From the IMG/VR virus record IMGVR_UViG_3300012349_000002, positions 1-56,247 of that record: a stretch of DNA of 56,247 nt. One strand, given 5' to 3'. Source of the stretch: a virus. The position numbers and the translations under genes were made by a program. Of this stretch, positions 17,204 to 54,437 are shown piece by piece. The stretch's first letter is position 1. Each line of letters starts with the position of its first letter. The notes below the pieces were generated by a model, which was not told the DNA's origin, did no database searches, and saw only the letters and a list, made by a program, of their open reading frames with translations.

Positions 17204-20200
17204 TTACGAAGCGAGCAATTTTGCCGCTGCGTCAATAAGATTTGGAGCCTGTGTAGCGTCATCGCAATCATGACTATAAATCTCGATGAAGTGCGCCCCG
17301 GCATTGATTCCCCTGTCGTTTGTTTCTTTCATGCTCACCAAATCGCCCCCTTGCCTGTTCAGATGCTGATAGCCAACAAGGGACGTTGGCGAAAGCGCTG
17401 TGACTTCTAATATACCAATGGAACCATCGGGCGGCTCATGGGGGTTTAATCCATCTGATTTAATCGCAAAATGGTTTCCCGGATAATTAGCCGCACCGTA
17501 ATCGCAAGCCGCCTGCAACGCGGCCGCACCAGCATCGGTCGTGTAAGGCGCACCAGTGTGAAGAATGAATGGCGTATGCGGACAGTACAAACCGTATCGG
17601 TCGATCACCCATTTCGTTCCGGTCAGCCAAGCATTCAAACCTGCTGTTAACCCGCCACCGGCGCTGAATCCCTGCGAGACAGCTAAGGCGTCTAAATCTG
17701 TTTGATCTTGCGCGGTCGTCACGAAGAAGGATTCCGCGCGCCGCCCTGGGCCGCCCGTAGCGTAGTAAACAATGTTCCTATCACTGCCGTAGCGTGCAAA
17801 AAAGACGTTCAGGAAAGCATCCCATTTCGATTGCCAAACCGGGTCCCATGGAAGTCCAAGCTTGTTCCTGTATTGCACTGCTCCGCCAGTTGACATCATA
17901 CCGCTGCCGCCAGAACAGCCTGTGAACGTTGTGCTTGTTATGCCTGTGTAAGTAACGATCTGTTCGCCGAGCGAGGTCGTGACATAAATTGTTCCACTTG
18001 GAGCCGGGAATTTGTTCGTGTCGAGCACGGTAATTGTCGTCTGCGGCAGCGATAGACCGTTCATGCTGGAGGCCAAAGTTGTATCTTGAAGAGAAACGTT
18101 GAAGTAGCTCGCGCCAGCGTCGTACACCCACGATGGAGTTGTTATTCCTGCCGTGACCAAGAGTGAAATCTTTTTCTTGTAGGTCTGTCCGAGCGCCACG
18201 GACTGATCGAAAAAGTCCCAATAAAAATCGCTCGCATTAGCGTGTTCATGCGGTTCGATCCTTTCCCAGGATGATCGGATAGCTACGCCTTGGATCAGTG
18301 GATGTGTCCATTCCGGGTCGCCAGTGAAATCATGGATTGGATCGCCAGCTTGATCGCTATTGGTTAGATACATGATGCCGAGTCCAAGACCGGATGCGAC
18401 ATCTCCGAAGGTTGCTGTATCGGTTCCGGTGCGTGATCTCTTGGGAACGCGGGTTGCCACTTCCGAGATTGTTGGATGATCCGTTACCGAACGTCGCGCT
18501 TGGGTATGACGAATGGCTGACTCTGTGGCGTGTGCCGCGTCTGAGACTGTCCGGCGTCTCGCTATGCTGCGAGTAGCCGTATCCGTTGCCGTTACTGATC
18601 CTACGACGTTTCGGGCGAGTCCCGTGGTGCGAACCGCTGCTGCGTTATCTGTCGCCGAGATCACGTCGGATGCATGCACAACGACCGTATTCGTAAAGAC
18701 CACCGCCGCGTCGTTGATGGTGCCAGTACTATCATCGGAAGTCCGCGAGAAAACTCCCGAGCGCGCGGCGGCATCAGCCCGTGAAATCGAGTCACTCGTT
18801 GCCCGTCGATTGGTAGCAACGCGATTAAGTGAATCCGTTGCGGTTGCGTGATCGGTTATTGAGCGACCGGATTGAATGACCCGTCTCCCTGAATCTGCGG
18901 CATGAACGCTTTGGGTGATGCTGCGGACAAGCGCCAGAACGCGAACAACTAGGTCGCTCGACGTGATTATATCAGCAACGTTGCGGGTAACAATGTTCAC
19001 GAACGCTATCGCAGAATCGAGGAAACCACCGGAATCCGAAATGTTCCGTGACAACTGAGCCGCTCGGGTAGCGGCATCTGTCGCCGTCGCCGCCTGAGTT
19101 GCCTGACGCGCGTTGATGGCCGCCCTAGCCGCCGAGTCTGACAGCCCAACTGAGTCACTCACTTTCGTGGCTCGCCCATAAACAGCGGCGCCGTCCGTAG
19201 AGATCGAGTCACTCGCATCGCGCAAGATGTTGGAGGGTGCTTCCAAGGAAGCAGCATCCTCCAGCGCGACTGCATCAGTCGAGTCCCTCGCTATATCAAC
19301 GAAGCGATCCGTCGAATCCGATACGGCGAATGCATCCGCTGTCATTGATTCACCGGGACCGACTACCACGTGCTGGCATTCGGGCGCGAAACTCGGCATG
19401 AACGTGATCTTCAACGTCTTAGGAGTCGGCGTGACCACGCAACTCAACGTCGCTGGCGTCACGTCGGCCACGGTGGCAGCGATGGTTTCTGGTGGGACAA
19501 CGGTGGCCGAAAGCGTTTTTGGCTCTACATTTACGTAGCAACTCAGGGTTTTCCGATAAAATAGGTTCAGGAAAACCTTAATGATGGTTATCCAAATCCG
19601 GCGTGCACAATCAGCTAACGTCATAGAGTCAGTTGTTCCACGTAGAAACACTCCAGCGCGAATGGCGACATCGACTTCAGTCGTTACGTCGTCTATTGAC
19701 CGGAGCAGATCAGCGATCCGGGTAGCGGTCTCTGATATTGTGACTGAATCTATGGTTGTCCTGAGCCTGCCAATCCCACGCACAGCCACGTCCGTCGCCG
19801 TGCTTTCATCGGTTCCGTCTCTGAGCAATGAGGCAATCGTAGTCGCAACGTCTGCAGCGGTTTGCGAATCAGTTATCGACCGGAGCAAAACTGCCAGTCG
19901 CGTAGCTGCATCTGAGAACGTCGGGGAATCTGTTGTTGAACGATTTACGCCTACGGAACGCTCAGCATCTTCTGCCGCCGTGCCAGTATCCGATGTGGAA
20001 CGGAACAGCCCAAGAATCCGGGTCGCAGCGTCCGCAATCGTTTGAACGTCTGTTATTGAACGGAAAAGTGCGACAAGGCGCGTTGTCGCATCGGATAAGG
20101 TCGAAGAATCCGTTGACGATCTTCCCGCATCAAGCCTCTTTGTACCGGCATCAGCAGCCGCGCCAGAATCAGTCACGGTTCGGAATAGCGTTACGATGCG

Positions 20201-21292
20201 CGTGGCGACATCGCTGGACATCACAGCGTCCACCGCAGCCCTGAGCAGCGCACCGCCGCTGGAAACGGCATCTGCCAGATCGGCAAAACTACTGGCGTCA
20301 TTTATGGCCCTAAAGAGATCAAGGACACGAGCTACGACATCAGAGAAGGTTGCGCCGTCGCTAGTTGATCGGGAACCTGTGAATTGGCGGGCTGAGGTTT
20401 CTTCAGCAGTTGAAGAGTCATCGGTTGATCTGTCGCCCGCGAACCCACGTGAAGTCGAATCGGTCTCGGTTGTCGCGTCGCTAATGGAGCGTGTTCCCGT
20501 AAACAGGCGCGACACGGAATCGCTTTCAGACGCGGCATCGCTTACCGATCTAAGAGAGTTGAGAATTCGAGCTGCACTTTCGCTGGTAGTTTCTGAATCG
20601 GTTATGCTTCTCGCACCTGCGAATATTCTGACTACAGCTTCGGCAAAATCTGCGCTGTCGCTAGCGCTCCGAAGTTTTGCGGTAATCTCTGAGACAACAT
20701 CGTCAAATGTTCCAGTATCAGTGACATTACGCAGCAAGACGGCGATCCGTGTCGCTACATCCGCGAACGTGGAGGAATCGCTGATTGCCCGGAGATAAGC
20801 AGTGATTCTCGTGGCGACATCTGATGCTGATGCCGAATCACTTGCTGTGCGTCCAAGAACAACCAAGCGAACCGCAGCGTCCGTGAAGCTTTCCGAATCG
20901 CTGACTGACCTTAAGCCAGAAAATAACCGCGTACCAGCATCAGCATCTGTTGCAGCATCCGCGACACTCCGGCTTCCCGCGAACAGTCGAGTCACCGCGT
21001 CTGCATCGGTGGCGGAATCAGTCACCGTTCTTAGTGCGACTAGAAGGCGCGCAACGGAATCCGCGTCTATAGCCGAATCGCTGGTTGCTCGCAGTCCGAC
21101 AAAGACTCGGTTGGCAGAAGAATCCAAATTCGTAGCCGAATCAGAAGGCGCACGCAAATTCGTAACGACGCGCGAAGCCGAATCGCCAGCCGTAAACGCG
21201 TCCACAGGATAGCCGAGCTTCAACGGCGGGATGACTACTCTGGGCTGCGGTACTCCCGTTATCGACGATCGCGTTGGATACGTCGTTATCAT
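17204..21292 (-). CDS. Giant repeat fibre protein with C-terminal glycosidase-like domain, 1362 aa
   Basis: Most of residues ~30-960 are degenerate 20-residue repeats of the form R-(S/T)-(I/V)-(S/T)-D-S-x5-D-(A/V)-x-(T/A)-R-(L/I)-x4. They are interrupted near residue 540 by a non-repetitive segment with KTLSATVV-like strands. The last ~380 residues are a glycosidase-like barrel (SSWERIEPHEHANASDFYWD) homologous to the secreted protein at 15730-16899. A long repeat shaft with a terminal enzymatic domain is typical of tail spikes/fibres that bind and cut capsule or exopolysaccharide. Coupled by ATGA to the upstream virion gene. Confidence 0.6.
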   Translation of the reverse strand: MITTYPTRSSITGVPQPRVVIPPLKLGYPVDAFTAGDSASRVVTNLRAPSDSATNLDSSANRVFVGLRATSDSAIDADSVARLLVALRTVTDSATDADAVTRLFAGSRSVADAATDADAGTRLFSGLRSVSDSESFTDAAVRLVVLGRTASDSASASDVATRITAYLRAISDSSTFADVATRIAVLLRNVTDTGTFDDVVSEITAKLRSASDSADFAEAVVRIFAGARSITDSETTSESAARILNSLRSVSDAASESDSVSRLFTGTRSISDATTETDSTSRGFAGDRSTDDSSTAEETSARQFTGSRSTSDGATFSDVVARVLDLFRAINDASSFADLADAVSSGGALLRAAVDAVMSSDVATRIVTLFRTVTDSGAAADAGTKRLDAGRSSTDSSTLSDATTRLVALFRSITDVQTIADAATRILGLFRSTSDTGTAAEDAERSVGVNRSTTDSPTFSDAATRLAVLLRSITDSQTAADVATTIASLLRDGTDESTATDVAVRGIGRLRTTIDSVTISETATRIADLLRSIDDVTTEVDVAIRAGVFLRGTTDSMTLADCARRIWITIIKVFLNLFYRKTLSCYVNVEPKTLSATVVPPETIAATVADVTPATLSCVVTPTPKTLKITFMPSFAPECQHVVVGPGESMTADAFAVSDSTDRFVDIARDSTDAVALEDAASLEAPSNILRDASDSISTDGAAVYGRATKVSDSVGLSDSAARAAINARQATQAATATDAATRAAQLSRNISDSGGFLDSAIAFVNIVTRNVADIITSSDLVVRVLALVRSITQSVHAADSGRRVIQSGRSITDHATATDSLNRVATNRRATSDSISRADAAARSGVFSRTSDDSTGTINDAAVVFTNTVVVHASDVISATDNAAAVRTTGLARNVVGSVTATDTATRSIARRRTVSDAAHATESAIRHTQARRSVTDHPTISEVATRVPKRSRTGTDTATFGDVASGLGLGIMYLTNSDQAGDPIHDFTGDPEWTHPLIQGVAIRSSWERIEPHEHANASDFYWDFFDQSVALGQTYKKKISLLVTAGITTPSWVYDAGASYFNVSLQDTTLASSMNGLSLPQTTITVLDTNKFPAPSGTIYVTTSLGEQIVTYTGITSTTFTGCSGGSGMMSTGGAVQYRNKLGLPWDPVWQSKWDAFLNVFFARYGSDRNIVYYATGGPGRRAESFFVTTAQDQTDLDALAVSQGFSAGGGLTAGLNAWLTGTKWVIDRYGLYCPHTPFILHTGAPYTTDAGAAALQAACDYGAANYPGNHFAIKSDGLNPHEPPDGSIGILEVTALSPTSLVGYQHLNRQGGDLVSMKETNDRGINAGAHFIEIYSHDCDDATQAPNLIDAAAKLLAS
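18400..21100 (-). repeat. 20-residue (60-bp) degenerate tandem repeats
   Basis: The coding DNA here carries dozens of 60-bp units encoding the R-x-x-S/T-D-S...D-A-x-x-R pattern. Units differ a lot in codon choice, and the array breaks between about 19300 and 19600. Confidence 0.8.
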
Positions 21293-38438: not shown

Positions 38439-39066
38439 CTTTAACAGAGGTACGCCATTCCTGCAACTCTTTTATTTTCCAACAGTCCTGAACTTGTTCG
38501 TATTGTTTCTCGTGTTCTTCGGTAATTCCCTTGGCCAGATGTTCTATAGATACCCAAACGGCGGCCTCGTTGCTGCACGCGCAAATCCCACATGCCTTCA
38601 GAAGATGATCGTACGGCGTTTTGCGCGCACCTTTTAGGCTTATCACCACGTTGGCAATTTGATGACACGCTTTGCATCCGGGGACGTTCACGTTAGCGAA
38701 GCACCGCGAACAAATCAGCGCGCGTTCATCTGCGACTTCCTGAGAAACTATTGCATCTGGACTTGCCAACATAGAGGCCGCCACCCCCGTACCACGGATG
38801 AAATCTAGCATAGTAAATCGCGTGGTATTGATGAACGATTCAGGCTTGCCACCCTCGCACCATTCGCCCGAGAGCGTCCGACAACATTGATCCTCAGCAA
38901 TCTCGCGCCAGTTTTCAGGGAGTGCATAGCCGTTGTCGATTGCGTGTTTATAGATTTGCGCGAACCAATCCTGCTTGGAGAACGCGCTTATCATTACCCC
39001 GTCCTCTGGAAATCGGTAACGGAATTTATCCGGCGGCGTGGTATTCGTTTCCTTGAATTTCAACAT
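38422..39066 (-). CDS. Cys-rich protein beside terminase, 214 aa
   Basis: Residues ~115-170 carry three or more Cys pairs (CSRCF, CKAC, CGICAC), likely two zinc sites, after an N-terminal helical domain (DWFAQIYKHAIDNGY). TGATG overlap with terminase suggests joint function; a packaging or head-completion accessory is plausible. No family recognised. Confidence 0.55.
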   Translation of the reverse strand: MLKFKETNTTPPDKFRYRFPEDGVMISAFSKQDWFAQIYKHAIDNGYALPENWREIAEDQCCRTLSGEWCEGGKPESFINTTRFTMLDFIRGTGVAASMLASPDAIVSQEVADERALICSRCFANVNVPGCKACHQIANVVISLKGARKTPYDHLLKACGICACSNEAAVWVSIEHLAKGITEEHEKQYEQVQDCWKIKELQEWRTSVKDAHGN

Positions 39067-40859
39067 CAGACAAACGAATAACTTTCCAGATAATTTCGTT
39101 GATCGAATTCGTCTTCTTGTTGCGGACGATATTCTTCCTCCACCGCTATGCCAAAGTCTGCCGGGGTCGCGCCTTGCTGGCGGCAGAATTCAATTCCTAT
39201 TGCCAAGCTATCAAAATCGTCCGGGCTGAACCCGAGACGTTGTTTGAACCCTCGCACCGGCCGCCCTTTTTCGTCCGTGCGTCCTTTTGAACCCGTCTTC
39301 GGTTCAGCGCACCATTTCCCGTTCCGGTAAAATGTACGGCGCGAACACGCCTGGAACGCTGCATCATGTGATAATCCACGAAGCCCGTCGGACAACGCGA
39401 ATTCTCTGACATTAAAACAAAGCTCGCTAGCGCGCGTGTCGTATGCTTCCTTCGCTGTTTTCCCGGACGTATCAACCGGAAGCTCGCTCGGGGCACCGCC
39501 CGATTCGATTCCGGTAACGTAACCCCACTCCCTGTCGAAGATAGATTTTAACCCACCGCCTTCTCCGCTGGCGTCCAACGCGAATTCTCTCGGTTTAATT
39601 CCACGCTTTTCGCATTCCACCTTGCAGAAATCCACGATCTGATAATGGAGCGGTCGTTCGGATTTAGCGTCAATCGGAACCATCTCAACTTCACGAGCTT
39701 CGATTATCCAACGCAGTCTTCCTCTGTCGTCCTCCGTTTGGCCGTAATGGATAAATGTCAATTTTGCCTTGTCGCCACCGCCAAACGCAGGATCAAGCGC
39801 GGCGCATTTCCTAAATCCCTGTGTCCATACAGCTTTATCCTTGCAATGGAACGTGATTAGGATCGCGTCATCAAGAAGAGTAGATTCCAAACCCATCGGT
39901 GGTGGCCAGCCGATGGCTTGGCTCCAAAAACCGGGGTCGTTCAGGTTGCCACGGACAGATTTGAGATGGTTGTCCACCCAATCTTTATTTATCAGCCACG
40001 GCAACCGTTTCTTTTCTTCCGGTGATTTATCTGCCGGACTTTTGCGGCCATCGAAAAATTGGCACAATCCATTCCCTGCCAGCGGACCGCCGAGCGTTTC
40101 CCATTGTTCGGTCTCGGCGCGGGTTACACTATCCCATCCGTTCACCGGCTCGCTCTCCCGCACGAGCGGACTGTGAATCGTGTCCGGGTTTCCCATCATC
40201 AGGAAATCGAATCGAGGATTTTTCGCCATATTGTTCGTGGCGCGCAAAATCGCTTCACGAATTCCCTGCCCCTCGTCGATTATCAGGAGAACACGCTGGG
40301 TATGGATGCCGATTAGGTTGTTGACGACCTCCTCAATCGGCCCCTCTTCCACGGCCATTCCGAATACCCCATTTTTATCGTCGCCCGCGCGCCACCGTAT
40401 CCGAGTGGATGAATCGAGAAGTTCCCCGGTGTACTGCATCACATCGTTAACTGCCTTGGGCAATGCCTGATGATAATGGGTGACGTACGACCAGATGCGC
40501 ATCCTGAGCATCTTCATCGTGGTCGAACAGAATATCACCGCAGTTTGAAACGGCGCTTGTAGCCAGTATTCCAGACCGAATACGCCAGCGTCTACAGTCT
40601 TGCCGCTCGCGGCCGGGCCGATCCATGTCGTCCAATGATGTGAACAGATTCCCTCCAATCGCCGGTCGTTCCATGTGTGCCACTGATATTCAGGCCAGAA
40701 AAATTTGATCCGCTCTTTCCGGTGATAGAACGCGCCTTTTCCGACATCATGATAGGCACAGAACTGATGCCGCGTTATCAAGGGAATGTCGCGCTGCTTC
40801 CATTCCTTAGCTTTTTGCGTCCAGTCTATGCCGAACTGAATATCGCGGCCAGCTCTCAT
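39066..40859 (-). CDS. Terminase large subunit
   Basis: ATPase: Walker A GPAASGKT (81-88) and Walker B LLIIDEGQG (191-199), then a coupling MMGNPDT (221-227). RNase H-like nuclease: AALDPAFGGGD (354-363), FALDASGEGGG (427-437) and DDFDSLAIG near 565. These motifs in this order define TerL, which pumps DNA into proheads and cuts concatemers. No TerS is adjacent; the HTH protein at 55138 is the best distant candidate. Confidence 0.9.
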   Translation of the reverse strand: MRAGRDIQFGIDWTQKAKEWKQRDIPLITRHQFCAYHDVGKGAFYHRKERIKFFWPEYQWHTWNDRRLEGICSHHWTTWIGPAASGKTVDAGVFGLEYWLQAPFQTAVIFCSTTMKMLRMRIWSYVTHYHQALPKAVNDVMQYTGELLDSSTRIRWRAGDDKNGVFGMAVEEGPIEEVVNNLIGIHTQRVLLIIDEGQGIREAILRATNNMAKNPRFDFLMMGNPDTIHSPLVRESEPVNGWDSVTRAETEQWETLGGPLAGNGLCQFFDGRKSPADKSPEEKKRLPWLINKDWVDNHLKSVRGNLNDPGFWSQAIGWPPPMGLESTLLDDAILITFHCKDKAVWTQGFRKCAALDPAFGGGDKAKLTFIHYGQTEDDRGRLRWIIEAREVEMVPIDAKSERPLHYQIVDFCKVECEKRGIKPREFALDASGEGGGLKSIFDREWGYVTGIESGGAPSELPVDTSGKTAKEAYDTRASELCFNVREFALSDGLRGLSHDAAFQACSRRTFYRNGKWCAEPKTGSKGRTDEKGRPVRGFKQRLGFSPDDFDSLAIGIEFCRQQGATPADFGIAVEEEYRPQQEDEFDQRNYLESYSFV

Positions 40860-42624: not shown

Positions 42625-42780
42625 TCACTTTCGTCTTTCGTAGGAATCGGTGACAATGTAGACAAAAACCCCAAGGCAGACCATGGCAAAAGCTAGGACA
42701 CGTTGTACCGGAGTGCCAACGACAATAGCGAACAGTGCAACACTATAAGGAAAAATTATCAGGAAGAATGTCTTAATCAT
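42625..42780 (-). CDS. Small two-span membrane protein, 51 aa
   Basis: ATG 42780 overlaps the upstream TGA. Two hydrophobic segments (FFLIIFPYSVALFAIVV and VLAFAMVCLGVFVYIVT) joined by a short polar loop (GTPVQR). Membrane hairpin of unknown function next to glycosyltransferase genes. Confidence 0.5.
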   Translation of the reverse strand: MIKTFFLIIFPYSVALFAIVVGTPVQRVLAFAMVCLGVFVYIVTDSYERRK

Positions 42781-44090
42781 GCCGACTGACTCCACAGTTG
42801 CTCGTTCCATTGACCTTCAAACGAATTTTCGATTTCAGGCGTTGCCCAGTGCGATTGGTGTTCTTCGTGCGTTATCACGTCTGGGATTTCAACCGGAGCG
42901 AAGTCATATTTAAGGTTTTCCATAGTTGTGGGGATGCGAAGCTGTTTACGCATCCAACGCGCCATTATTAAATCCGGTTTTTGCGCGCTCCAGTACGGAT
43001 TAGGAACCCTGTCCAGATGATCTTTGAGCCAATCCCTGCGAAACCAGAATATCTCGCGCCCGATATGAACAGGATCGCGTGGGCGACGGGAACAACCAAA
43101 GTTCCACTTGCCCGCGTGCTGGCGAATCTTGTCTAAGGAACCGTTTAGAAATGCGACATCATCATTCGTGAAAACGATCACATCCTTCCCGGTTTCGAGA
43201 CCTTTTCCCAAAAAATCTCTCATTTTTGGATGGCGCGCTTTGACGTAAATAAAATCGGACAAATGCGTTTCCATTGCGCGTTTATGCCTGTTACTCGACG
43301 GATCGTAGGAATTGACGACCACGGCAAGAGACTTCACTTCACACGATATTTGCCGCTTCGCCGCTTCCACTACTGCCGTTAAATCTTTACCAATCTCAGA
43401 GCGTGTCCACGAAGCGACCACCTGCGGCGGAGGAACAGCACCAAGCCATCCGTCATTCAAGATTGCAATCACCGGGCAGTTGCTCGCGCGTGCGAGGTGA
43501 AGATGAACCGTGTCCACCGTTACGAGGCAATCAGCAAGTTCGTAAAGTCCAAGAAGATCAATAATGCTGTCGGCTCTAACGTTGTCCATGTCGATCACGT
43601 CCACGTCCAATCCGCGAATCATAGCGATTAATTTATTAGCGTGTTTGAACGGTGTAGAAATGTTGGTCGTTGATACTAAAACGAGAGGGCGCTTATAGTC
43701 CGGTACGTGTCGCCGAACTAATTCGTCCTCTTCCGTTAAGTCCCGCCTGTCGAAAATCAACGGCCACTTCCCGTATTCATCGAGATACCCGCACAATCGC
43801 CATTCCTCTTTGCAGAACGAGTCCGTCATCCTTCGTTTGTCTGAGTTGCGATTGCACTGGCCGACGAGAAGATTCGATGACGTTCTCCATCCGTACTCCA
43901 TCGCTTGAAGAAGAGTCTCTGGGCTTCCGTGCCATTCACGGGGCGTTACGTACGAACAGCGGCTTAATGTTTTCTCAAAATCGTGGCCAACGATCCATTC
44001 CACTTTGCCTTTCTTCGACAGATGATAGGCGAGAGGAAGCAGATTGATGATGTCCCCGTGACGCCCAAGGAGTAGGATCGTATTCGTCAC
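42777..44090 (-). CDS. Two-domain glycosyltransferase, GT9-like plus GT-A-like, 437 aa
   Basis: The first half is a GT-B enzyme resembling GT9/heptosyltransferases: TILLLGRHGDIINLLPLAYH at the start and CLVTVDTVHLHLARASNCPV near residue 210, the donor-site region. The second half is a second transferase-like domain: AVVVNSYDPSSNRHKRA, then KDVIVFTNDDVAFLNGSL with an acidic metal motif. Two domains in one chain suggest sequential addition of two sugars. ATGA overlap couples it to the next transferase. Confidence 0.65.
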   Translation of the reverse strand: MTNTILLLGRHGDIINLLPLAYHLSKKGKVEWIVGHDFEKTLSRCSYVTPREWHGSPETLLQAMEYGWRTSSNLLVGQCNRNSDKRRMTDSFCKEEWRLCGYLDEYGKWPLIFDRRDLTEEDELVRRHVPDYKRPLVLVSTTNISTPFKHANKLIAMIRGLDVDVIDMDNVRADSIIDLLGLYELADCLVTVDTVHLHLARASNCPVIAILNDGWLGAVPPPQVVASWTRSEIGKDLTAVVEAAKRQISCEVKSLAVVVNSYDPSSNRHKRAMETHLSDFIYVKARHPKMRDFLGKGLETGKDVIVFTNDDVAFLNGSLDKIRQHAGKWNFGCSRRPRDPVHIGREIFWFRRDWLKDHLDRVPNPYWSAQKPDLIMARWMRKQLRIPTTMENLKYDFAPVEIPDVITHEEHQSHWATPEIENSFEGQWNEQLWSQSA

Positions 44091-45070
44091 GCCTTAGAGG
44101 CTTCGTATTTGCGCAGCGCTTCCAATCGCTGCTCTTTCGTGGCTGAACGCCTACGTTTGATACGCCGCTTGCGCGGTTGCCATTTCTGTTGTGCTTTCTT
44201 TTCGTATTCCGCGAGTTGTTCCCCGTATGGCGTTAACGGAGATGACTGGACGGATGTTTCATGCTCATTGGTCCCACACACAACAGAGGTCACAGGTTCT
44301 CCCTGTGCACCATGTCCGCCAGCCATCAGCTCCCCCCGGAGCATATCAATCAAAGTACCATCCTTATTCCGATGAAAAAACGCCGTCTCGGGTTCGAGAA
44401 GGTGTCTATCGCCCGGGAACGTCGGAGCCTGATTCTCACGCGCCCAATAGACGTGCTGAAATAGTTTAGAGAAATGAACTTGATTCATTACCTCCATTGC
44501 CCCAGCCATATCAAACGCGACTTCGGAACCGTTAGGATATTCTAGCGCCTTCACGAGTGACGGTGCCAGTTGAACCGCATTATCGGGATACACGCCTGAA
44601 CCGTTCATACGTTCGCGTCCGTTGATGTTGACGTACGCTCCCATGAAATCTTTGCCGCATGATTGATATTCCTTCTCTATAAGATCAAACGCATCTGGTT
44701 TCGTCGGAATGCAGTCCGGCTCACAAAATAGCCACGCGCCTTTCTTTTGGAGATAAAAATGCCACGCGGCCTGTCGGAACATGGAGTTCGGCCCGCGCGC
44801 GTCCCTGAATTGATCGTCACTCTTCCAATCGCTTGTTATTCCTTCGGCATCTTGAATTTCGTGTACGAATTTGAAAGCTTTCTTTGCGGCTTCCGTTGTG
44901 CGACTGGAATTCATTCCCTTGAATGGGAGCAGCCACAAAACGTGACGCTCTTGGATGCCGCAGAATTCCGCTACCCACTCTATCCAATCGACCGCTTGAT
45001 CGTAATCGTATAATGAAAACGGAAGGACAACGTTCATTTTAACGGCAAGCAGGACGGCAGTGCGAGACAT
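44087..45070 (-). CDS. GT-A-like glycosyltransferase, 327 aa
   Basis: Contains WLLPFKGMNSSRTTEAAK, a central LFCEPDCIPTKPDAFD (acidic metal-binding motif with the family's D-x-D-like spacing) and DFMGAYVNINGRERMNG. The C-terminal ~25 residues are strongly basic (KRRIKRRRSATKEQR). ATG 45070 is preferred; MNVVLPF at 45037 is an alternative. It heads the leftward operon; an inverted repeat operator candidate (45072-45150) lies just upstream. Confidence 0.6.
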   Translation of the reverse strand: MSRTAVLLAVKMNVVLPFSLYDYDQAVDWIEWVAEFCGIQERHVLWLLPFKGMNSSRTTEAAKKAFKFVHEIQDAEGITSDWKSDDQFRDARGPNSMFRQAAWHFYLQKKGAWLFCEPDCIPTKPDAFDLIEKEYQSCGKDFMGAYVNINGRERMNGSGVYPDNAVQLAPSLVKALEYPNGSEVAFDMAGAMEVMNQVHFSKLFQHVYWARENQAPTFPGDRHLLEPETAFFHRNKDGTLIDMLRGELMAGGHGAQGEPVTSVVCGTNEHETSVQSSPLTPYGEQLAEYEKKAQQKWQPRKRRIKRRRSATKEQRLEALRKYEASKA

Positions 45071-45071
45071 T

Positions 45072-45150
45072 CAGGTTGGAATGTTGGGCGTGAACGACCC
45101 ACAAGGCGCGCTGCCGTCGTGTTTAACGTTTTCTTCTTCATTCCAACCTG
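45072..45150. promoter_or_regulatory. 12-bp inverted repeat in the divergent GT/fibre promoter region
   Basis: CAGGTTGGAATG (45072-45083) and its exact complement CATTCCAACCTG (45139-45150) are 55 bases apart in the gap between two divergently transcribed operons. One copy touches the - gene's start codon, the other is 33 bases before the + gene. This could be an operator bound by a dimer (or tetramer by looping) controlling both late operons. Confidence 0.5.
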
Positions 45151-45183
45151 TGAATCTTAAACGGATAATCTGTCGTTGCACAT

Positions 45184-48100
45184 TTGGCAACAACAATTAT
45201 TATCGTCCACGAAATGCCCGGTCTTCGTAACCCGCCCCCGGAACAGCCGGTACGCACTTATCCGACGCCAGACATTACCGATCAGGTTCTTCTTGAATGG
45301 GTAACGTCAGAGACGGCATCAGCCACTCCTCTCGAACCGGGATCGGATCATCCTAACCAGCGCGAGTTTGCCGGATTCAAGCTCGGTAAACAGGAGGTTA
45401 ACCCGCGCGATCCGTTCTGGTTTATCAGGTACTGGGTAATCGACCAGCCTGACCCGGATTTTTACAATTACTCGATCAAATACTCGTCGGAAAGTAACGC
45501 GCATCAAATCCTGATCCGCGCTTACCGGGAGCTGAAAGACGGGTATGTGCCACGGACAAAAGGAACGGCGCTCGACGATTTCCCGGGCGCAATTCTTGTC
45601 AGCGAAGAAGCGCAACAGTTCCCTCAGACCAGCGAGTATTTTGCCAACTATTTCAACGTCATTCGTGTGTACGAGACGTTGCCTGGGCCGATCCTGACTT
45701 CGACGGAATTCGAGAGGGACGGGATCAAAAAGGTCGTCACCAAACAGCGGATGCTGGCGACGGTCGTGGTTACAGAAGAAGACCTTACCGGCGGCATTCT
45801 GACCCACAGATACGAGGAAGCTGTAGACTCCGTTGTCTCCAACCAAGTTGTCGAGACGATCACGGTAGATAGCGAAAGCTTGCTGGATGATCCCGAGTTC
45901 TCGGTCTCAATCCCAAACGTTATCCCGGAGATATTCCGGGCTCTGATTCCTACCCGAACGGAAGGTCATATCGTTCCGGGTGAAGCCACCGCGCCTACTC
46001 TCGGGTTTGGAGAGTTCGAGCGGTCGGAACGCCAACTCCATCCGCTCTACAAAGAAGTTCGATTTACGGTTCTAGATAGCGTTGCTCTCCCATACACGAT
46101 TTCCGGCCTGAAAGAGACCGATGCCGATAAACAGGTCGTCGATATTTCGATGACGTTGGAGCTGGACACGGCCACTCCGAGCCTTCCCGATGCTACGACC
46201 GATGTTGAATTCAAGAAGCTCGGGAACGGAATGGCCGTGGAAATCATTCGGACGGTACCGGAGGTTTTCCCTCGCGACAGCTACACCAAGAGCATTCTCA
46301 ACCTTATCCCGGAAAAACTCCGGGCAACGATTCCAACTTTCGAGAGTACTATTGACGAGCCAGGGGCACCGTCCGTCGATCCGATCCTTCTTACGGGCGA
46401 GTTATCCAGAACCGAATCGCGGCTAACCGAATTCACCAAGCGAACGCGGATTACAAGTCTCGGTGCGATTTCCGTCCCCGTCAGCATATCGGCGACCGAG
46501 ACGCGCCCGGATAAACAGGTCGCCACAACGACGTGGACTCTGGAATTGGTCGGGACTTCGATTGTCACGCCTACATCCACGCTGGACGTGGCCGTGGAAG
46601 ATTTGGGGAACGGGTACGAAGTACAGACAGTCACGACCGTCCCGGAGGTCTTCAAAGCTGGCAGTTACACCAAGACAATCCTGAATCTGATCCCTCCTGA
46701 ACTCCGGGCAACAGTTCCAACGACAGAGACAGACGAAACCAGTGATGGTATCGCCTCCACCGATCCCACGTTGCTTTCGGGCGAGCTGTCCAGGAATGAG
46801 GAGCAAGTCAACGAGTTCACGAAGCGGGTTCGAATAACGAGTCTTGGTGCAATCACGGTTCCGATCTCTATCACGGCGTTAGAGACTGATCGTGACAAGC
46901 AAATTGTATCAATCGTTTACACTTTGGAGCTGGTAGGAACAAACGCAGTTGTTCCCACCGCCTTAATAGATGTAGAGGTCAAGGATTTAGGTAACGGGTA
47001 CGAGGTCGTCACCACACGGACAATTCCAACCGTATTCGATCCTCACACGTATACCAAGAGCATCCTGAACCTCATTCCTGAGCGGTTGCGTGCAACCGTA
47101 GCTACGGTCGAGGCGGATGACACCTCCATTGGAACAGCTTCCACCAATCCCACTCTGCTGACCGGAGAGCTTTCTAGGAGCGAGACCCAAGTGTCCGAGT
47201 TCGTAATGCGGATTCGGACAACGAGCCTTGGCGATATTACCGTGCCGGTCTCGATTTCAGAGACCAAGACCAGACCCGACAAACAGATCGAGACGATTGT
47301 TTATACATTGGAATTGGTCGGGACATCGGTTGCAACGCCGAATTCCACCACGGATGTCGCAGTTGAAGATTTAGGCAATGGCTACGAAGTCCAGACTGTT
47401 GCCACCGTGCCCGAAGTATTCAAGGCGGGAAGTTATACAAAGACGGTTCTCAACCTTATTCCGCCTGAGTTGCGCGCGGCGGTTCCGACAACGGAAACAG
47501 ATGAGACCAGCGTGGGAACGGCTTCCGCTGATCCTACATTATTGACAGGCGAACTCTCCCGAAATGAAGAGCAGGTAAACGAATTCACCAAGCGCGTACG
47601 GATTACCAGCTTAGGAGCGATCACCGTTCCGGTTTCAATCACCGCTTTGGAGACGGATAAAGATAAGCAGATCGTCTCAATAGTTTACACACTGGAAAAT
47701 GTCGGCACCAACGCGGTTGTCCCAACGGCGCTAATAGATGTCGAGGTCAAAGACCTTGGGAATGGCTATGAAGTTGCAACCACGCGTACGATCCCCACTG
47801 TATTTGATCCGCATACTTACAGCAAAAGTATACTCAACCTGATCCCGGAAAGGCTGCGCGCTACGGTGGCTACGGTCGAAGCCGATGATACTTCGATTGG
47901 AACGGCATCGACTGATCCTACGCTCCTGACTGGGGAACTCTCCCGTAGCGAAACGCAGGTCTCGGAATTCGTCATGCGAATTCGTACCACGAGTTTGGGC
48001 GACATTACCGTTCCCGTATCGGTTTCCCGAACGGAGACTACTAGGGATAAACAGGTAGCAACGATTGTTGATACTCTCGAATTGACGGGGACATCTAGCG

Positions 48101-49875
48101 CGACGCCCAGTTCGATTCAGGATGTTGACGTGATTGATCTCGGGAACGGGTATGAGGTCGAGACGGTTACGATGGTTCCTGACGTATTCGTTTCTGGCAG
48201 CTACACCAAGACCGTCGAGAACCTGATCCCGGCGGAACTGCGCGCGGCGGTTCCTACCGTCGAGACAGATGAAACCAGTGCGGGCACGGCTTCTACTGAT
48301 CCAACGCTGCTGACCGGCGAACTGTCGCGTAACGAAGAACAGGTCAATGAATTTACGATGCGAGTCAGGATACGCAGTCTTGGCTCCATATCAGTCCCCG
48401 TAAGCATCACCGCGCTGGAGACGAATCAGGACAAACAAATCGTTTCCATTGTTTATACGCTTGAGCTGGTAGGAACGAACGCCGTTGTCCCGACAGCGTT
48501 GATAGACGTTGCGGTTAAAGATTTGGGGAACGGCTATGAGGTCGCCACAATCCGCACGATAGATTCGGTGTTCCCCGCTAACACCTATTCCAAGAGCATA
48601 CTCAACCTTATCCCGCCTGAGTTCCGAGCAGTTGTTCCCACGGTTGAGAGCGATGTTACCAGCGAGGGAACGGCGTCCACCGACCCGACGTTGTTAACGG
48701 GCGAGCTGTCGCGTTCCGAGACCCAAGTTAGCGAGTTCGTAATGCGGGTTCGCACCACGAGCTTTGGCAATGTGGTTCTTCCGATAACACTCACGGGCGG
48801 CGAAAAAATTGTGGAGAAATTTGGGTTACAACTGGTCGCCGACGAAGTAATCACCCTAGCCTACTCTGGCACAACCAGTATTCCAACCGGTTCATTGGTC
48901 ATTGACGCAGCGATCAAAGAGATCGGTGCTGGCATGGAAATTCTTACGACATTGGTCGTGGCTGATGCTGCATGGCCGATTATACCAAGCCGTTTGTGGG
49001 ATGAAAACATGCGGGTTGAGTATGACGAGACCAATCAAATCGTAGCTGTCGGGAGCGCAGAAGACCCTGATCCCGGCGGAGTATTTGCGTGGACATCGGA
49101 AGTAAGAGGGATAGACCAATGGCACGCGCGCAAGACGAACGTTAACAAGCCTAGTCCTCCCTATACGAATTCGACGACTGCGCTTGTCACTTATGACTTT
49201 AGGCCTTTTAAGTTCCCCGGGACAGTAGACGTGATCCTTGCTTATAATTCGGGTGCGGTGTTGGGGAATAGGGAAACCAAAGCTGAATTGGTGTTACACA
49301 CGATCAGAACATGGTGGCAGAAAAGTGCTACTACACCTACGGTAACGTTCGATGAGATCATCACGGATTCGGTTACGATCACAACCGCTGGTTTGACCAC
49401 CAATAGGACGTTTCAAGACGTGTTGCATGATGGCTTTTACGCGCAATGGCTGTATGCCACCGAATTTTTCCCTGCAACGACACCGAGTTTCACTGAGTAC
49501 TATAAAGGAACAGATGCCGGAACGTTCACCAATCACAATCAGATTGTAGCTTATACGATAGGCACGGGATACACGGTTGGAGACAATCTTACGATTGGAT
49601 TAGCGAGCATTCAGATTACGGGAGTTGGAATAGCAGGTTCAATTTTCAATTTTAATGTAACCGATGAGGGGGTAGGAGGAACCTATTTAAACCCCGTCAC
49701 AGCTACCGGCGGAACCGGGACCGGGGCTACATTCAACGTTACCGCGTACACCGTTCCTGATTACGTTCCGGGATCGCAATGGATAGGCACAGAGCGCATC
49801 GTTCACGCGTCGGTGACACCGGAGCGCGAGAAAGACATTTGGAGAATCTCAACCGAGTCTGTGACAATGCGATGA
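45184..49875 (+). CDS. Giant repeat tail-fibre protein, 1563 aa
   Basis: After an N-terminal region without recognised motif (begins MATTIIIVHEMPGLRNPPPE), residues ~370-1200 are six to seven repeats of ~129 residues. They alternate between two types: one with (R/E)NEEQVNEFTKRVRITSLGA and DLGNGYEV..R-T-I-P-x-VFDP, the other with RSETQVSEFVMRIRTTSLGD and DLGNGYEV..VPEVFKAGSYTKT. The C-terminal ~380 residues (WTSEVRGIDQWHARKTNVNK, Gly/Thr-rich turns) may be the receptor-binding end. Start TTG 45184 or ATG 45214; neither has a clear ribosome site. Confidence 0.65.
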   Translation: MATTIIIVHEMPGLRNPPPEQPVRTYPTPDITDQVLLEWVTSETASATPLEPGSDHPNQREFAGFKLGKQEVNPRDPFWFIRYWVIDQPDPDFYNYSIKYSSESNAHQILIRAYRELKDGYVPRTKGTALDDFPGAILVSEEAQQFPQTSEYFANYFNVIRVYETLPGPILTSTEFERDGIKKVVTKQRMLATVVVTEEDLTGGILTHRYEEAVDSVVSNQVVETITVDSESLLDDPEFSVSIPNVIPEIFRALIPTRTEGHIVPGEATAPTLGFGEFERSERQLHPLYKEVRFTVLDSVALPYTISGLKETDADKQVVDISMTLELDTATPSLPDATTDVEFKKLGNGMAVEIIRTVPEVFPRDSYTKSILNLIPEKLRATIPTFESTIDEPGAPSVDPILLTGELSRTESRLTEFTKRTRITSLGAISVPVSISATETRPDKQVATTTWTLELVGTSIVTPTSTLDVAVEDLGNGYEVQTVTTVPEVFKAGSYTKTILNLIPPELRATVPTTETDETSDGIASTDPTLLSGELSRNEEQVNEFTKRVRITSLGAITVPISITALETDRDKQIVSIVYTLELVGTNAVVPTALIDVEVKDLGNGYEVVTTRTIPTVFDPHTYTKSILNLIPERLRATVATVEADDTSIGTASTNPTLLTGELSRSETQVSEFVMRIRTTSLGDITVPVSISETKTRPDKQIETIVYTLELVGTSVATPNSTTDVAVEDLGNGYEVQTVATVPEVFKAGSYTKTVLNLIPPELRAAVPTTETDETSVGTASADPTLLTGELSRNEEQVNEFTKRVRITSLGAITVPVSITALETDKDKQIVSIVYTLENVGTNAVVPTALIDVEVKDLGNGYEVATTRTIPTVFDPHTYSKSILNLIPERLRATVATVEADDTSIGTASTDPTLLTGELSRSETQVSEFVMRIRTTSLGDITVPVSVSRTETTRDKQVATIVDTLELTGTSSATPSSIQDVDVIDLGNGYEVETVTMVPDVFVSGSYTKTVENLIPAELRAAVPTVETDETSAGTASTDPTLLTGELSRNEEQVNEFTMRVRIRSLGSISVPVSITALETNQDKQIVSIVYTLELVGTNAVVPTALIDVAVKDLGNGYEVATIRTIDSVFPANTYSKSILNLIPPEFRAVVPTVESDVTSEGTASTDPTLLTGELSRSETQVSEFVMRVRTTSFGNVVLPITLTGGEKIVEKFGLQLVADEVITLAYSGTTSIPTGSLVIDAAIKEIGAGMEILTTLVVADAAWPIIPSRLWDENMRVEYDETNQIVAVGSAEDPDPGGVFAWTSEVRGIDQWHARKTNVNKPSPPYTNSTTALVTYDFRPFKFPGTVDVILAYNSGAVLGNRETKAELVLHTIRTWWQKSATTPTVTFDEIITDSVTITTAGLTTNRTFQDVLHDGFYAQWLYATEFFPATTPSFTEYYKGTDAGTFTNHNQIVAYTIGTGYTVGDNLTIGLASIQITGVGIAGSIFNFNVTDEGVGGTYLNPVTATGGTGTGATFNVTAYTVPDYVPGSQWIGTERIVHASVTPEREKDIWRISTESVTMR
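46290..48700 (+). repeat. Tandem ~387-bp fibre repeats, alternating two types
   Basis: Units recur about every 387 bases (for example the SILNLIPE/P-x-LRA block near 46290, 46677, 47061, 47448, 47832, 48216 and 48600), and two unit types alternate, giving a super-period near 772 bases. Protein repeats are nearly identical, while many synonymous codons differ. Confidence 0.85.
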
Positions 49876-50098: not shown

Positions 50099-50944
50099 AT
50101 GGATTTAGAAGATAACATCGAGACCACACGCCGTGTTCGGCGATTAGAGGAACGTTTTAAACGCCTAAATATCCTAGGAGGTTCAGGAGTGCAGGTCGAG
50201 GGAGATGTTACGAAAGGCTACGCGGTTGATACGAGCCAATTAGGAGCAGAAGCAATTGTAGAAATTATTGGCGGAATACTTATTGGAGCTTGTTGTATAG
50301 GGGAAGCATGCAGTTTGACAACCGAATCAGATTGTATTGCTTCCGGGGGGGCCTTCTTAGGCGCTGGGACAGTTTGCAGTCCGAATCCTTGCCTTGTTGT
50401 GTTGCCTTCGTGTTCAACATGTTACTTTACTAACTCCTGCTTTGGCGACGGTAAACGTTGGCTGACGAAAACCTGTGTGACAAGTAGATATGCAATCGGT
50501 AATTTTGATTATGACGGTGACACGCAATGGGAGCAAGGTACCTTCTCTCAAACTCGTTCCTATGTGCCTGGTAGTTGCACCGAAGACAACAGTGGATGTG
50601 AAGGTTCCGGTCATATTCACATGCCGTTTATAGGTCCACCATATAATGAACCAGGTGGGGATTGTGATTATTCAGGCTGCGCCCCGCCGGTGGGATGCGT
50701 GATAGAGGGTTACGGAGAGATTTCGTTAGGGCGCGGAACGTCTGATGCGTGCGTTGATCTAGGACCAGGTTGCGACATCGGTGACTTTTATTGTGCAAGC
50801 TGTGGCGGTGGCATAACAAGTTGCTCTTCAGATTTTCAGGAATCCTATTATACGGTGGCTTGGCCTTGCTGCGACGGAAGTTGTGCCAACACAAGTGGAT
50901 ACGTTATTTATGATGTCTACTACTCAGACGAATGCTCGCCATGA
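50099..50944 (+). CDS. Cys-rich secreted-type domain protein, 281 aa
   Basis: N-terminus has the same coiled-coil start as the preceding gene (TRRVRRLEERFKRL, then GGSGVQVEG). The main part holds about 27 Cys residues, including GACCIGEACSLTTESDCIAS, a pattern typical of Cys-rich modules in Planctomycetota and related bacteria. No signal peptide is visible. Disulfide-rich fibre-tip or receptor-binding domain is likely. Confidence 0.5.
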   Translation: MDLEDNIETTRRVRRLEERFKRLNILGGSGVQVEGDVTKGYAVDTSQLGAEAIVEIIGGILIGACCIGEACSLTTESDCIASGGAFLGAGTVCSPNPCLVVLPSCSTCYFTNSCFGDGKRWLTKTCVTSRYAIGNFDYDGDTQWEQGTFSQTRSYVPGSCTEDNSGCEGSGHIHMPFIGPPYNEPGGDCDYSGCAPPVGCVIEGYGEISLGRGTSDACVDLGPGCDIGDFYCASCGGGITSCSSDFQESYYTVAWPCCDGSCANTSGYVIYDVYYSDECSP

Positions 50945-51747: not shown

Positions 51748-53364
51748 ATGCCAATAGACGACATAGTATCCGTAAACGTCACCACGCCGGAAGGCATCCA
51801 GAACGTTATTGTTCAGGGAAACGTCGGAGGCACTGGACCAACTGGACCAACCGGGCCTACCGGGCCAACGGGGCCAGCTGGAGCAGATGGATTAAACACT
51901 CAAGCGGTTTACGTCAACTACCTGTTCTCAACGACGACAACGGATTCCGACCCGGGCAATGGCAATCTTCGTCTGAACAACGCCACGCAATTATCGTCGA
52001 CGGTTATCCGCGCCGATTTGATTGACGTTAACTCGCAGACCGTGACTGCGGTGTTGGATAACCTCGATGCGAGCACTAGTACCGTCAAAGGTTACATTAG
52101 GCTGTATAAAACTGATGATCCTACCAAGTGGATAGAGTTCACCCTATCTTCGCGAGCGTCTCCGAGCGGTTACAGAAATCTTACGGTAACTGAGGTTGCC
52201 GGTAGCGGGAGCAATCCCTTTGCTAATCTCGACCCGGTAACGCTGGTATTTTCGCGCACAGGCGACGCAGGCGTAGGCGCGACAGGCCCAACGGGCGGCA
52301 CCGGTGGAACGGGTGGAACAGGTGGAACGGGCCCGGCTGGCGCGACGGGACCAACCGGAGGAACCGGAGGTACCGGAGGAACTGGAGGCACGGGTGGAAC
52401 CGGAGGAACAGGCGGGGCTGGTCCAACTGGGCCAACCGGGCCAATGGCTGCGTCCGGTGCGGATGTTAGCAATTCTGCGACTCAAAGCATATCCGCGAGC
52501 ACGGATACGGCGCTCACGTTCGACACTGAAACGACTGATACAGACGGTTATCATTCGATTGTTTCTGCAACATCCAAGCTAACCGTCCCAACTGGTCAGG
52601 GTAACGCTTTCTTTACGATCACAGGCTGGTTCACGTTTGCGGCGTCGGTTGGCGGAACCGAGCGCACCGCAAAGATCAGGCTCAACGGAACCACGATAAT
52701 TGCCGAGCAGACTGAGCAAGGATTGGTCAATGCCAATCTGGACATGAACATTGCCAAGGTAATCAAGCTCGCCGACGGCGATTACGTCGAGCTAGTTGCC
52801 TTCCAGGACAGCGTAGGTTCTATCAATGTTCAGACCGGTGCTTCATTTTCGATAGCGCGCGAGGGTGGCCCTATCGGAGCCACGGGACCGACCGGCGGTA
52901 CCGGGGGTACTGGTGGTACCGGACCAGCAGGCGGCGGAACTTTGTCGCAGGTCAGCGGATCGGATTTTACTACGAGCAGTACTACGCTTGTGGATATTAC
53001 GGGATTAACCTTTGCGGCATCTGCTAACACCAAATACGAAGTGGACGTTTTGTTGACTGTTCAAAGCAGCACCTCGGCGGGATTAAAGCCATCTATCGCA
53101 TTTAGCGCGGCTGGCGCTACCGGGCAGTGGCAAGGACTGGCCAACTCTACAAGCGGTGGCGTTGTAGCGGGCTTGGCGCAAGTGATCGGAACGGCCAATA
53201 CCGCTGCTGTTATTACTACTGCGGCAACAACGGGAGGAATTTGGATGAAGACTATTGTAAATGTGGGTGCAAACGCTGGAAACATAACTGCCCAAATACT
53301 TAAGGTCACTAGCGGAACGGCCACTGTTTACATAGGTTCGAGGATGACGGTCACGACATTGTGA
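51748..53364 (+). CDS. Collagen-like tail fibre, 538 aa
   Basis: Short N-terminal domain (DDIVSVNVTTPEGIQNVIVQ), then Gly-x-y repeats (GPTGPTGPTGP at ~28-45), a beta domain, a second longer Gly-x-y block rich in GGT/GPT (~178-235), then a C-terminal beta region with a third short GGT block. Collagen-like triple helices form the shaft of many phage fibres; the beta domains probably trimerise or bind the receptor. It is followed by a GT4 transferase that could glycosylate its Thr residues. Confidence 0.7.
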   Translation: MPIDDIVSVNVTTPEGIQNVIVQGNVGGTGPTGPTGPTGPTGPAGADGLNTQAVYVNYLFSTTTTDSDPGNGNLRLNNATQLSSTVIRADLIDVNSQTVTAVLDNLDASTSTVKGYIRLYKTDDPTKWIEFTLSSRASPSGYRNLTVTEVAGSGSNPFANLDPVTLVFSRTGDAGVGATGPTGGTGGTGGTGGTGPAGATGPTGGTGGTGGTGGTGGTGGTGGAGPTGPTGPMAASGADVSNSATQSISASTDTALTFDTETTDTDGYHSIVSATSKLTVPTGQGNAFFTITGWFTFAASVGGTERTAKIRLNGTTIIAEQTEQGLVNANLDMNIAKVIKLADGDYVELVAFQDSVGSINVQTGASFSIAREGGPIGATGPTGGTGGTGGTGPAGGGTLSQVSGSDFTTSSTTLVDITGLTFAASANTKYEVDVLLTVQSSTSAGLKPSIAFSAAGATGQWQGLANSTSGGVVAGLAQVIGTANTAAVITTAATTGGIWMKTIVNVGANAGNITAQILKVTSGTATVYIGSRMTVTTL

Positions 53365-54437
53365 GACTGCATCTCGTTGCGCTTCCGCATACGCAGGTCT
53401 CTAATGAGTTTTGCGGATGCGCGTATACGTCTAACATTGTAAAATTTTGTAAGATGTTGGGGCAAGAGCATGAAATTTTCGTGTATGCACCTGACGGCCC
53501 ACCGATTAATGGCGCAACACTCGTTCCATGTTTTACATACGAAGAACGCACAAAATTGTTCGGAGAATATGATCCAGACCGAAACCCATCTTGGCCTACA
53601 GACCAACAATTTGTAGGATTTAATGAGCACGTCGTTGAAGCCCTGAAAGAACATCTAAGTGCTCGTGACCTAATTTTGATCTCTGCTGGCTGGTGCCATA
53701 AACTTGTATATGATTCCTTTCCAGCCCATATTAGGTGCGAACAAGGCGTGGGGTACGAAGGTATTATATCTACCTTCTGCGCTTTCCCTTCCTACGCTTG
53801 GATGCACTACGTCTATGTCAAAAAGAAAATAGACGACGGACGTTGGTACGACGTTGTGATTCCACATTTTGTCGATTCGGACGAGTTTCCTAAATTGAAT
53901 AGTGGCAAAGGGAAATACTTATTGTTCCTCGGCCGTATCATCGAACGCAAAGGTCCGCACATCGCTGGGGAAATAGCTCAGAGAACTGGATTGCCGTTGA
54001 AGGTTGCTGGTCCTAGTGGGAGACAAGTGGGCGAAGATATTGCCGGTGCGGGTGTGACGATTAAAAACGCTGAGTATGTTGGTTCAGTCAACATTAGAGA
54101 ACGTGCTGAACTCTTAGCAAACGCCAAAGCCCTAGTCGTCCCAACAACTTACTTCGAACCATTCGGTAACGTCGTAATCGAAGCTATGATGGCAGGTACC
54201 CCGGCGATAACGACCGACTGGGGCGCGTTTCCCGAGACCGTCCACAATGGCGTATCAGGATTCCGCTTTCGCACGTTGAAGGAAGCAGCGGCAATTATCG
54301 AGAAAGCTCTGTGGCCAGCCCCGAGCGTCATCCGCCAATACGCAACCCAACGCTTCTCCCTCGCCGCCGTCACGCCCAAATTCAATCACTGGTTTAATCA
54401 GCTCGATTCCCTCTGGGGCAAGGGCTGGTACGCTTAA
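53361..54437 (+). CDS. GT4 family glycosyltransferase, 358 aa
   Basis: GTG 53361 overlaps the fibre stop (GTGA). Typical GT-B layout: N-terminal LVALPHTQVSNEFCGCAYTS, a GRIIERKGPHIA linker region entering the donor domain, and the donor E-x7-E motif EPFGNVVIE (266-274). Its coupling to the collagen-like fibre gene suggests it glycosylates the fibre; acting on a surface or DNA sugar is the alternative. Confidence 0.75.
   Translation: MRLHLVALPHTQVSNEFCGCAYTSNIVKFCKMLGQEHEIFVYAPDGPPINGATLVPCFTYEERTKLFGEYDPDRNPSWPTDQQFVGFNEHVVEALKEHLSARDLILISAGWCHKLVYDSFPAHIRCEQGVGYEGIISTFCAFPSYAWMHYVYVKKKIDDGRWYDVVIPHFVDSDEFPKLNSGKGKYLLFLGRIIERKGPHIAGEIAQRTGLPLKVAGPSGRQVGEDIAGAGVTIKNAEYVGSVNIRERAELLANAKALVVPTTYFEPFGNVVIEAMMAGTPAITTDWGAFPETVHNGVSGFRFRTLKEAAAIIEKALWPAPSVIRQYATQRFSLAAVTPKFNHWFNQLDSLWGKGWYA

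What the first reader, a model, noticed from the sequence alone, without database searches (positions are those of the whole stretch)
45900..48800. Tail-fibre repeats with near-identical protein but scrambled synonymous codons
Repeat units of ~129 residues are nearly identical in protein yet very different in DNA. In one 25-codon stretch shared by copies near 47170 and 47940 (identical residues) I counted 17 synonymous differences, and in a 31-codon stretch near 46582 and 47353, 21 of 30 identical residues use different codons. This saturated silent divergence with frozen protein points to strong selection on the fibre together with pressure against recombination between repeats, or to an active process diversifying synonymous sites.
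Basis: seen in the sequence. Interest (0 to 1): 0.75.

Follow-up and report, generated by a model that had tools for sequence, protein, structure and literature searches.

The report
Silently scrambled repeats in phage fibre
A large fibre-like protein of an uncultured phage contains copies of the same two-domain block that remain 83-91% alike as protein but whose DNA spelling has become as different as chance allows, most simply because the copies are old, strongly conserved and no longer exchange DNA, not because something actively rewrites them.

Summary
ORF 45184-49875 holds eight tandem domains, the inner ones of exactly 384 nt (128 aa, not ~129) and alternating as types A and B. Like copies are 83-91% identical in protein, only 70-71% in DNA. 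Codon shuffling shows silent sites fully randomised: 299 of 441 shared residues use different codons, 294±10 expected. That is the ceiling, not beyond it, and the longest shared run (16 nt) is what chance gives, so active silent diversification is unsupported. Maximum likelihood gives dS of at least 7 and omega of at most 0.015, below nearly all ordinary genes of sister phages. The array sits in the top few percent of 499 ortholog windows of equal protein identity, but is not unique. Relatives carry 1, 1, 4, 4 and 10 units; the 10-unit one has the same A/B layout with half-randomised codons. Best reading: tandem duplication of a two-domain block, then long independent drift under strong purifying selection without detectable exchange. 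Natural codon scrambling to block recombination stays possible but unproven.

The parts
45184..49875 (+). ORF of 1563 aa: fibre-like structural protein carrying the array; the more likely start is ATG 45214, since an MP...P start is shared by L007 and L010
   Evidence: no convincing Pfam, PHROG or PDB family
45184..45864 (+). N-terminal domain, 51-52% identical to sister phage L007/L009 and up to 59% to L010, only about 27-30% to L004/L005
45865..46248 (+). U0, divergent first domain
46249..46632 (+). U1, entry unit, B-like in its last quarter (28 of 32 residues as U3)
46633..47016 (+). U2, type A
47017..47400 (+). U3, type B
47401..47784 (+). U4, type A (91% aa and 71% nt to U2)
47785..48168 (+). 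U5, type B (86% aa and 70% nt to U3)
48169..48552 (+). U6, type A (85% to U4, 83% to U2)
48553..48957 (+). U7, exit unit: type B in its first half, divergent second half with a small insertion as in the last unit of relatives
48958..49872 (+). C-terminal domain, 43-46% identical to L004/L005 and 33% to L007

Best explanation
The gene encodes a long, all-beta, fibre-like virion protein whose shaft is built from tandem 128-residue domains. In this lineage a two-domain block (A-B) was duplicated inside the array, giving A-B-A-B-A plus modified end units. Every copy then evolved on its own for a long time under very strong purifying selection on the protein, so silent positions drifted to full randomisation. 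Once like copies fell to about 70% DNA identity with no shared run over 16 nt, homologous exchange between them became unlikely, which kept them from being homogenised or deleted. Shown: array anatomy, silent saturation, low dN/dS, no trace of exchange, clustering of inner units by phage. Inferred: that it is a tail fibre, that recombination stopped because of divergence, and that constraint comes from packing of successive domains.
For: Codon choice in like copies is statistically independent: 299/441 different, expected 293.8±9.5. GY94 dS lower limit 7.4-12, omega upper limit 0.004-0.015. Codon-process simulation matched to the observed protein identity gives the observed ratio only for omega of about 0.015 or less. 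Inner units of W group together and those of L005 largely group together, while end units are orthologous between L004 and L005. Unit counts: W 8, L005 10, L004 4, L002 4, L007 1, L010 1. L005 shows the same A/B blocks at an earlier stage: 82-97% aa with codon-difference ratio 0.59-0.78, omega 0.017-0.09. Ordinary T4-RB69 genes (gp13, gp17, uvsW) reach ratio 1.0-1.12 at 83-94% aa. Two-domain blocks are reported as the commonest unit of repeat expansion (PMC1553488).
Against: Omega is lower than almost any ordinary gene of the sister phages (mostly 0.01-0.09), although the fibre is one of the more divergent genes between phages (37% W-L007 against 71% for the terminase-like gene). Protein-like pairs share slightly fewer codons (ratio 1.02) than protein-unlike A-B pairs (0.92; bootstrap P 0.007, site-matched permutation P 0.03), the reverse of simple descent.
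Confidence: 0.7

Rival explanations
1. Natural codon scrambling: lineages in which like repeats kept shared DNA runs lost units by recombination, so selection favoured silent differences between like copies.
For: Three of four like pairs sit at ratio 1.02-1.08, above the 0.75-0.91 averages of even deep T4-RB49 orthologs; like pairs share fewer codons than unlike pairs (P 0.007 and 0.03); 95% aa tiles have ratio 1.11.
Against: Excess over random is not significant (dimer 160 against 151.8±6.6, P 0.12; longest run 16 nt = chance). L005, with the same architecture, is not scrambled (ratio 0.59-0.78). The like/unlike contrast is post hoc and small.
Confidence: 0.15
2. Mosaic assembly: near-identical protein units with different codons were collected by recombination from several co-circulating relatives rather than duplicated within one genome.
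For: The fibre itself is mosaic: N-terminus near L007/L010, C-terminus near L004/L005. Phage BACON arrays in two lineages grew partly by transfer of separate domains (PMC6949934).
Against: Units have similar base composition (GC3 0.55-0.66) and W's inner units group together in the tree; no donor units found in IMG/VR or INPHARED.
Confidence: 0.12
3. An active mutational process diversifies synonymous sites of recent duplicates.
For: High silent divergence at high protein identity.
Against: Divergence is capped at the random level, all substitution classes occur, no excess anywhere along the units; gradual intermediate in L005.
Confidence: 0.03

Closest known systems
crAssphage BACON-domain tandem array (PMC6949934)
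   Same: Phage tail-associated tandem array of Ig-like domains, expanded inside one phage lineage by internal duplications, with units that then stay stable
   Different: No BACON or other convincing Pfam/PHROG match here; expansion is by two-domain blocks, whereas crAss-BACON grew by single domains; that paper does not analyse synonymous sites (zero hits for the word)
Domain-repeat proteins expanded by multi-domain blocks (PMC1553488)
   Same: Duplication in the middle of the array, period of two domains
   Different: Described mainly from eukaryotes; no codon-level analysis there
Within-protein repeats surveyed by Persi et al. (PMC5120217)
   Same: Paralogous repeats under purifying selection
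   Different: They report horizontal dN/dS usually far above vertical; here it is at most about 0.015. Their method does not assign values to pairs with pS or pN of 0.75 or more, so arrays like this one would be invisible to it
Engineered codon-scrambled repeat genes (e.g. PMC12365220, abstract only)
   Same: Same protein repeats written with different codons, short shared runs
   Different: Engineered on purpose; here mismatch count and run length equal chance, so no design-like excess

Membership tests
Lineage-expanded tandem-domain array in a phage virion protein | Head-to-tail domains of constant length in one ORF | tested here: met
   384-nt spacing without indels for U1-U7
Lineage-expanded tandem-domain array in a phage virion protein | Inner units more alike within a phage than to those of relatives | tested here: met
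   tree; within W 59-91% (U1-U6) against about 33-36% to L005
Lineage-expanded tandem-domain array in a phage virion protein | Unit number varies between relatives | tested here: met
   1 to 10 units
Tail fibre | Homology to a known fibre or receptor-binding protein | tested here: not met
   no convincing Pfam, PHROG, PDB sequence or fold match; one uncharacterised Caudovirales protein in BFVD
Tail fibre | Trimeric or elongated virion appendage | not testable with these tools
   all-beta model, pLDDT 82; context only: collagen-like gene downstream, terminase-like gene 39066-40859
Concerted (homogenised) repeat array | DNA of copies nearly as alike as protein | tested here: not met
   70-71% DNA against 83-91% protein
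Codon-scrambled array under selection against recombination | More silent differences, or shorter shared runs, than random codon choice | tested here: not met
   299 against 293.8±9.5; longest run 16 against 16.6
Diversity-generating retroelement target | Adenine-directed, mostly non-synonymous variation against a template repeat | tested here: not met
   changes are silent and of all classes; a reverse transcriptase was not searched for

The most novel reading that the evidence does not exclude
The array is a natural case of codon scrambling: selection for genetic stability of a long repeat protein has kept like copies from sharing codons, below the level that even saturated orthologs share, so that they escape homologous recombination.
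Probability: 0.15. Interest if true: 0.7.

Novelty: new member of a known kind. Interest (0 to 1): 0.35.

Why it matters
Surveys of protein repeats usually find relaxed selection or homogenisation between copies and leave out pairs with saturated silent sites. Here a phage array has a very low dN/dS between copies inside one gene, and a relative shows the same process half-way. It is a clean system for asking when diverging repeats become safe from recombination, and a reminder that saturated arrays are missed by standard methods. If selection for codon difference were shown, it would be a natural version of a trick engineers use to stabilise repeat genes.

Tried and rejected
Excess of silent change over random: rejected by permutation. 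Codon-usage or base-composition differences between units as a sign of foreign origin: not seen (GC3 0.55-0.66). Uneven hot spots along the unit: silent change is spread over all quarters. Pfam DUF3805 and CvfB hits and PHROG hits rejected as spurious: borderline, no significant stretch, 14-64 residues. Self-BLAST of whole proteins printed nothing because the full-length self hit hides the rest; redone with tiles. Collagen-like repeats of the same window are too short and low-complexity for a dN/dS test; in two of three stretches neighbouring units share codons slightly more than shuffled. Fold searches of the dimer and unit models found no solved structure. Whole-protein scans of IMG/VR and INPHARED found nothing; only degenerate unit, C-terminal or N-terminal profiles found relatives.

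Full report
WHAT IS THERE. The window is a 56-kb IMG/VR virus record. ORF 45184-49875 (+) has an N-terminal domain, eight tandem domains (U0-U7) and a C-terminal domain. U1-U7 repeat at exactly 384 nt. Inner units alternate: A = U2, U4, U6; B = U3, U5; U1 is an entry unit that is B-like only in its last quarter, and U7 is a B-type unit with a changed second half. A structure model of one unit with 28 relatives in the alignment (pLDDT 82) is all-beta apart from one short turn of helix. It matches no solved structure and one uncharacterised Caudovirales protein in BFVD (E 1e-6). The gene at 39066-40859 belongs to a family with terminase-large-subunit matches (best 4e-10), so this is a tailed phage. 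'Tail fibre' is plausible from size, repeats and the collagen-like neighbour, but unproven.

CHECK OF THE OBSERVATION. Like pairs are 83-91% identical in protein and 70-71% in DNA; Nei-Gojobori pS 0.77-0.92, dN 0.07-0.125. I replaced pS by a sharper measure: among identical residues with a codon choice, how many use different codons, against shuffles of synonymous codons over the array. For U2-U4, U4-U6, U2-U6 and U3-U5 together 299 of 441 differ, 293.8±9.5 expected; the longest identical run is 16 nt, 16.6 expected. Codons of like copies are therefore independent of each other: complete saturation, not more.

HOW UNUSUAL IS IT. Pairwise codon maximum likelihood gives dS lower limits of 7.4-12 and omega upper limits of 0.004-0.015; sister-phage orthologs mostly have omega 0.01-0.09, and the repeats of L005 0.017-0.09. 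Simulation under one omega for all sites needs omega of about 0.015 or less. As observed/expected codon-difference ratio, W like pairs give 1.08, 1.04, 1.02 and 0.92; 128-codon ortholog windows with 82-95% protein identity (W-G1, G1-G6, W-G6, G2-G3, T4-RB69, T7-phiYeO3-12) average 0.78, with 16 of 499 at 1.0 or more, the highest ones in T4-RB69. Even deep T4-RB49 pairs average 0.75-0.91. So the array is in the upper tail, inside the range of ordinary conserved genes. Other repeats in these genomes at 90-96% identity are less randomised: L005 fibre 0.62-0.79, collagen-like arrays of G2 0.40-0.60.

RELATIVES. Related genes were found in L002 = L003, L004 = L006, L005, L007 = L009 (IMG/VR) and L010, in a bin assigned to Acidobacteria gp4. 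Unit counts are 4, 4, 10, 1, 1. L007's contig is syntenic with the window (terminase-like gene 71%) but its fibre has one unit. In the unit tree, first and last units of L004 and L005 pair as orthologs while inner units of W and of L005 cluster by phage (several forks are weak): arrays expand, or contract, within lineages. L005 also has A/B blocks, at an earlier stage: u4-u6 97% protein, 85% DNA, 43% of codons different where 64% is random. It keeps shared runs up to 40 nt, longer than in codon-shuffled arrays (P 0.003), a hint of past exchange or recent descent; W has none (16 nt). W's fibre is mosaic: N-terminus closest to L007/L010, C-terminus closest to L004/L005, so the age of the array cannot be bracketed by the W-L007 split.

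MECHANISM. The simplest account is duplication of a two-domain block, then long drift under strong constraint, with exchange between copies stopping as shared runs disappeared. Two-domain blocks are the commonest expansion unit in domain-repeat proteins (PMC1553488), and a phage precedent for lineage-expanded tail arrays exists (PMC6949934). The exceptional part is the strength of constraint between copies in one gene, against the general finding of high horizontal dN/dS (PMC5120217), a survey whose method leaves out saturated pairs.

WHAT REMAINS OPEN. Like pairs share slightly fewer codons than A-B pairs (ratio 1.02 against 0.92, bootstrap P 0.007; at fully conserved sites permutation P 0.03), opposite to descent and in the direction expected if shared DNA between like copies were selected against. 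The effect is small, post hoc and seen in one array; L005 does not show it. I rate it 15%.

VERDICT. Observation confirmed; strong constraint and lack of exchange supported; active silent diversification not supported; selection against recombination not demonstrated.

Noticed in passing
window 45184-45214: The conserved start of the protein in three phages (an MP... start followed by VRTYPTPD or similar) points to ATG 45214 as start rather than the listed TTG 45184.
   Followed up: partly
window 45184-49875 against L007, L010, L004, L005: The fibre gene is a mosaic: N-terminal domain from a L007/L010-like lineage, array and C-terminal domain nearer L004/L005.
   Followed up: partly
L005 units 2 and 5 (unit positions 148-188), 4 and 8 (6-37): Runs of 40 and 31 identical nt between repeat units, longer than chance, suggest local gene conversion between repeats in that phage.
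   Followed up: partly
window 17204-21292 (-): A 1362-aa ORF with many internal repeats (about 50% identical at a spacing of about 60 aa).
   Followed up: no
window 51748-53364: Collagen-like (GPT/GGT)n protein; sister phages have similar genes, one (G2 44699-46081) with a 48-aa repeat at 95% identity and only partly diverged codons.
   Followed up: partly
window 50099-50944: Cysteine-rich protein with a CCxxxxCxxxTxxxCxxxGGxFxGxGTxC motif, unlike usual virion proteins.
   Followed up: no
L010 (QHXS01000008.1): A one-unit relative and its terminase neighbour (L012/L025) lie in a metagenome bin named Acidobacteria gp4, a lead on the host group; it may be a binned phage contig.
   Followed up: no
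window 42777-45070 (-) and 53361-54437: Genes beside the fibre: 53361-54437 is a group 1 glycosyltransferase (Pfam); 42777-44090 and 44087-45070 look like glycosyltransferases but have no Pfam match; the latter two are conserved in L007 at 46% and 43%.
   Followed up: no
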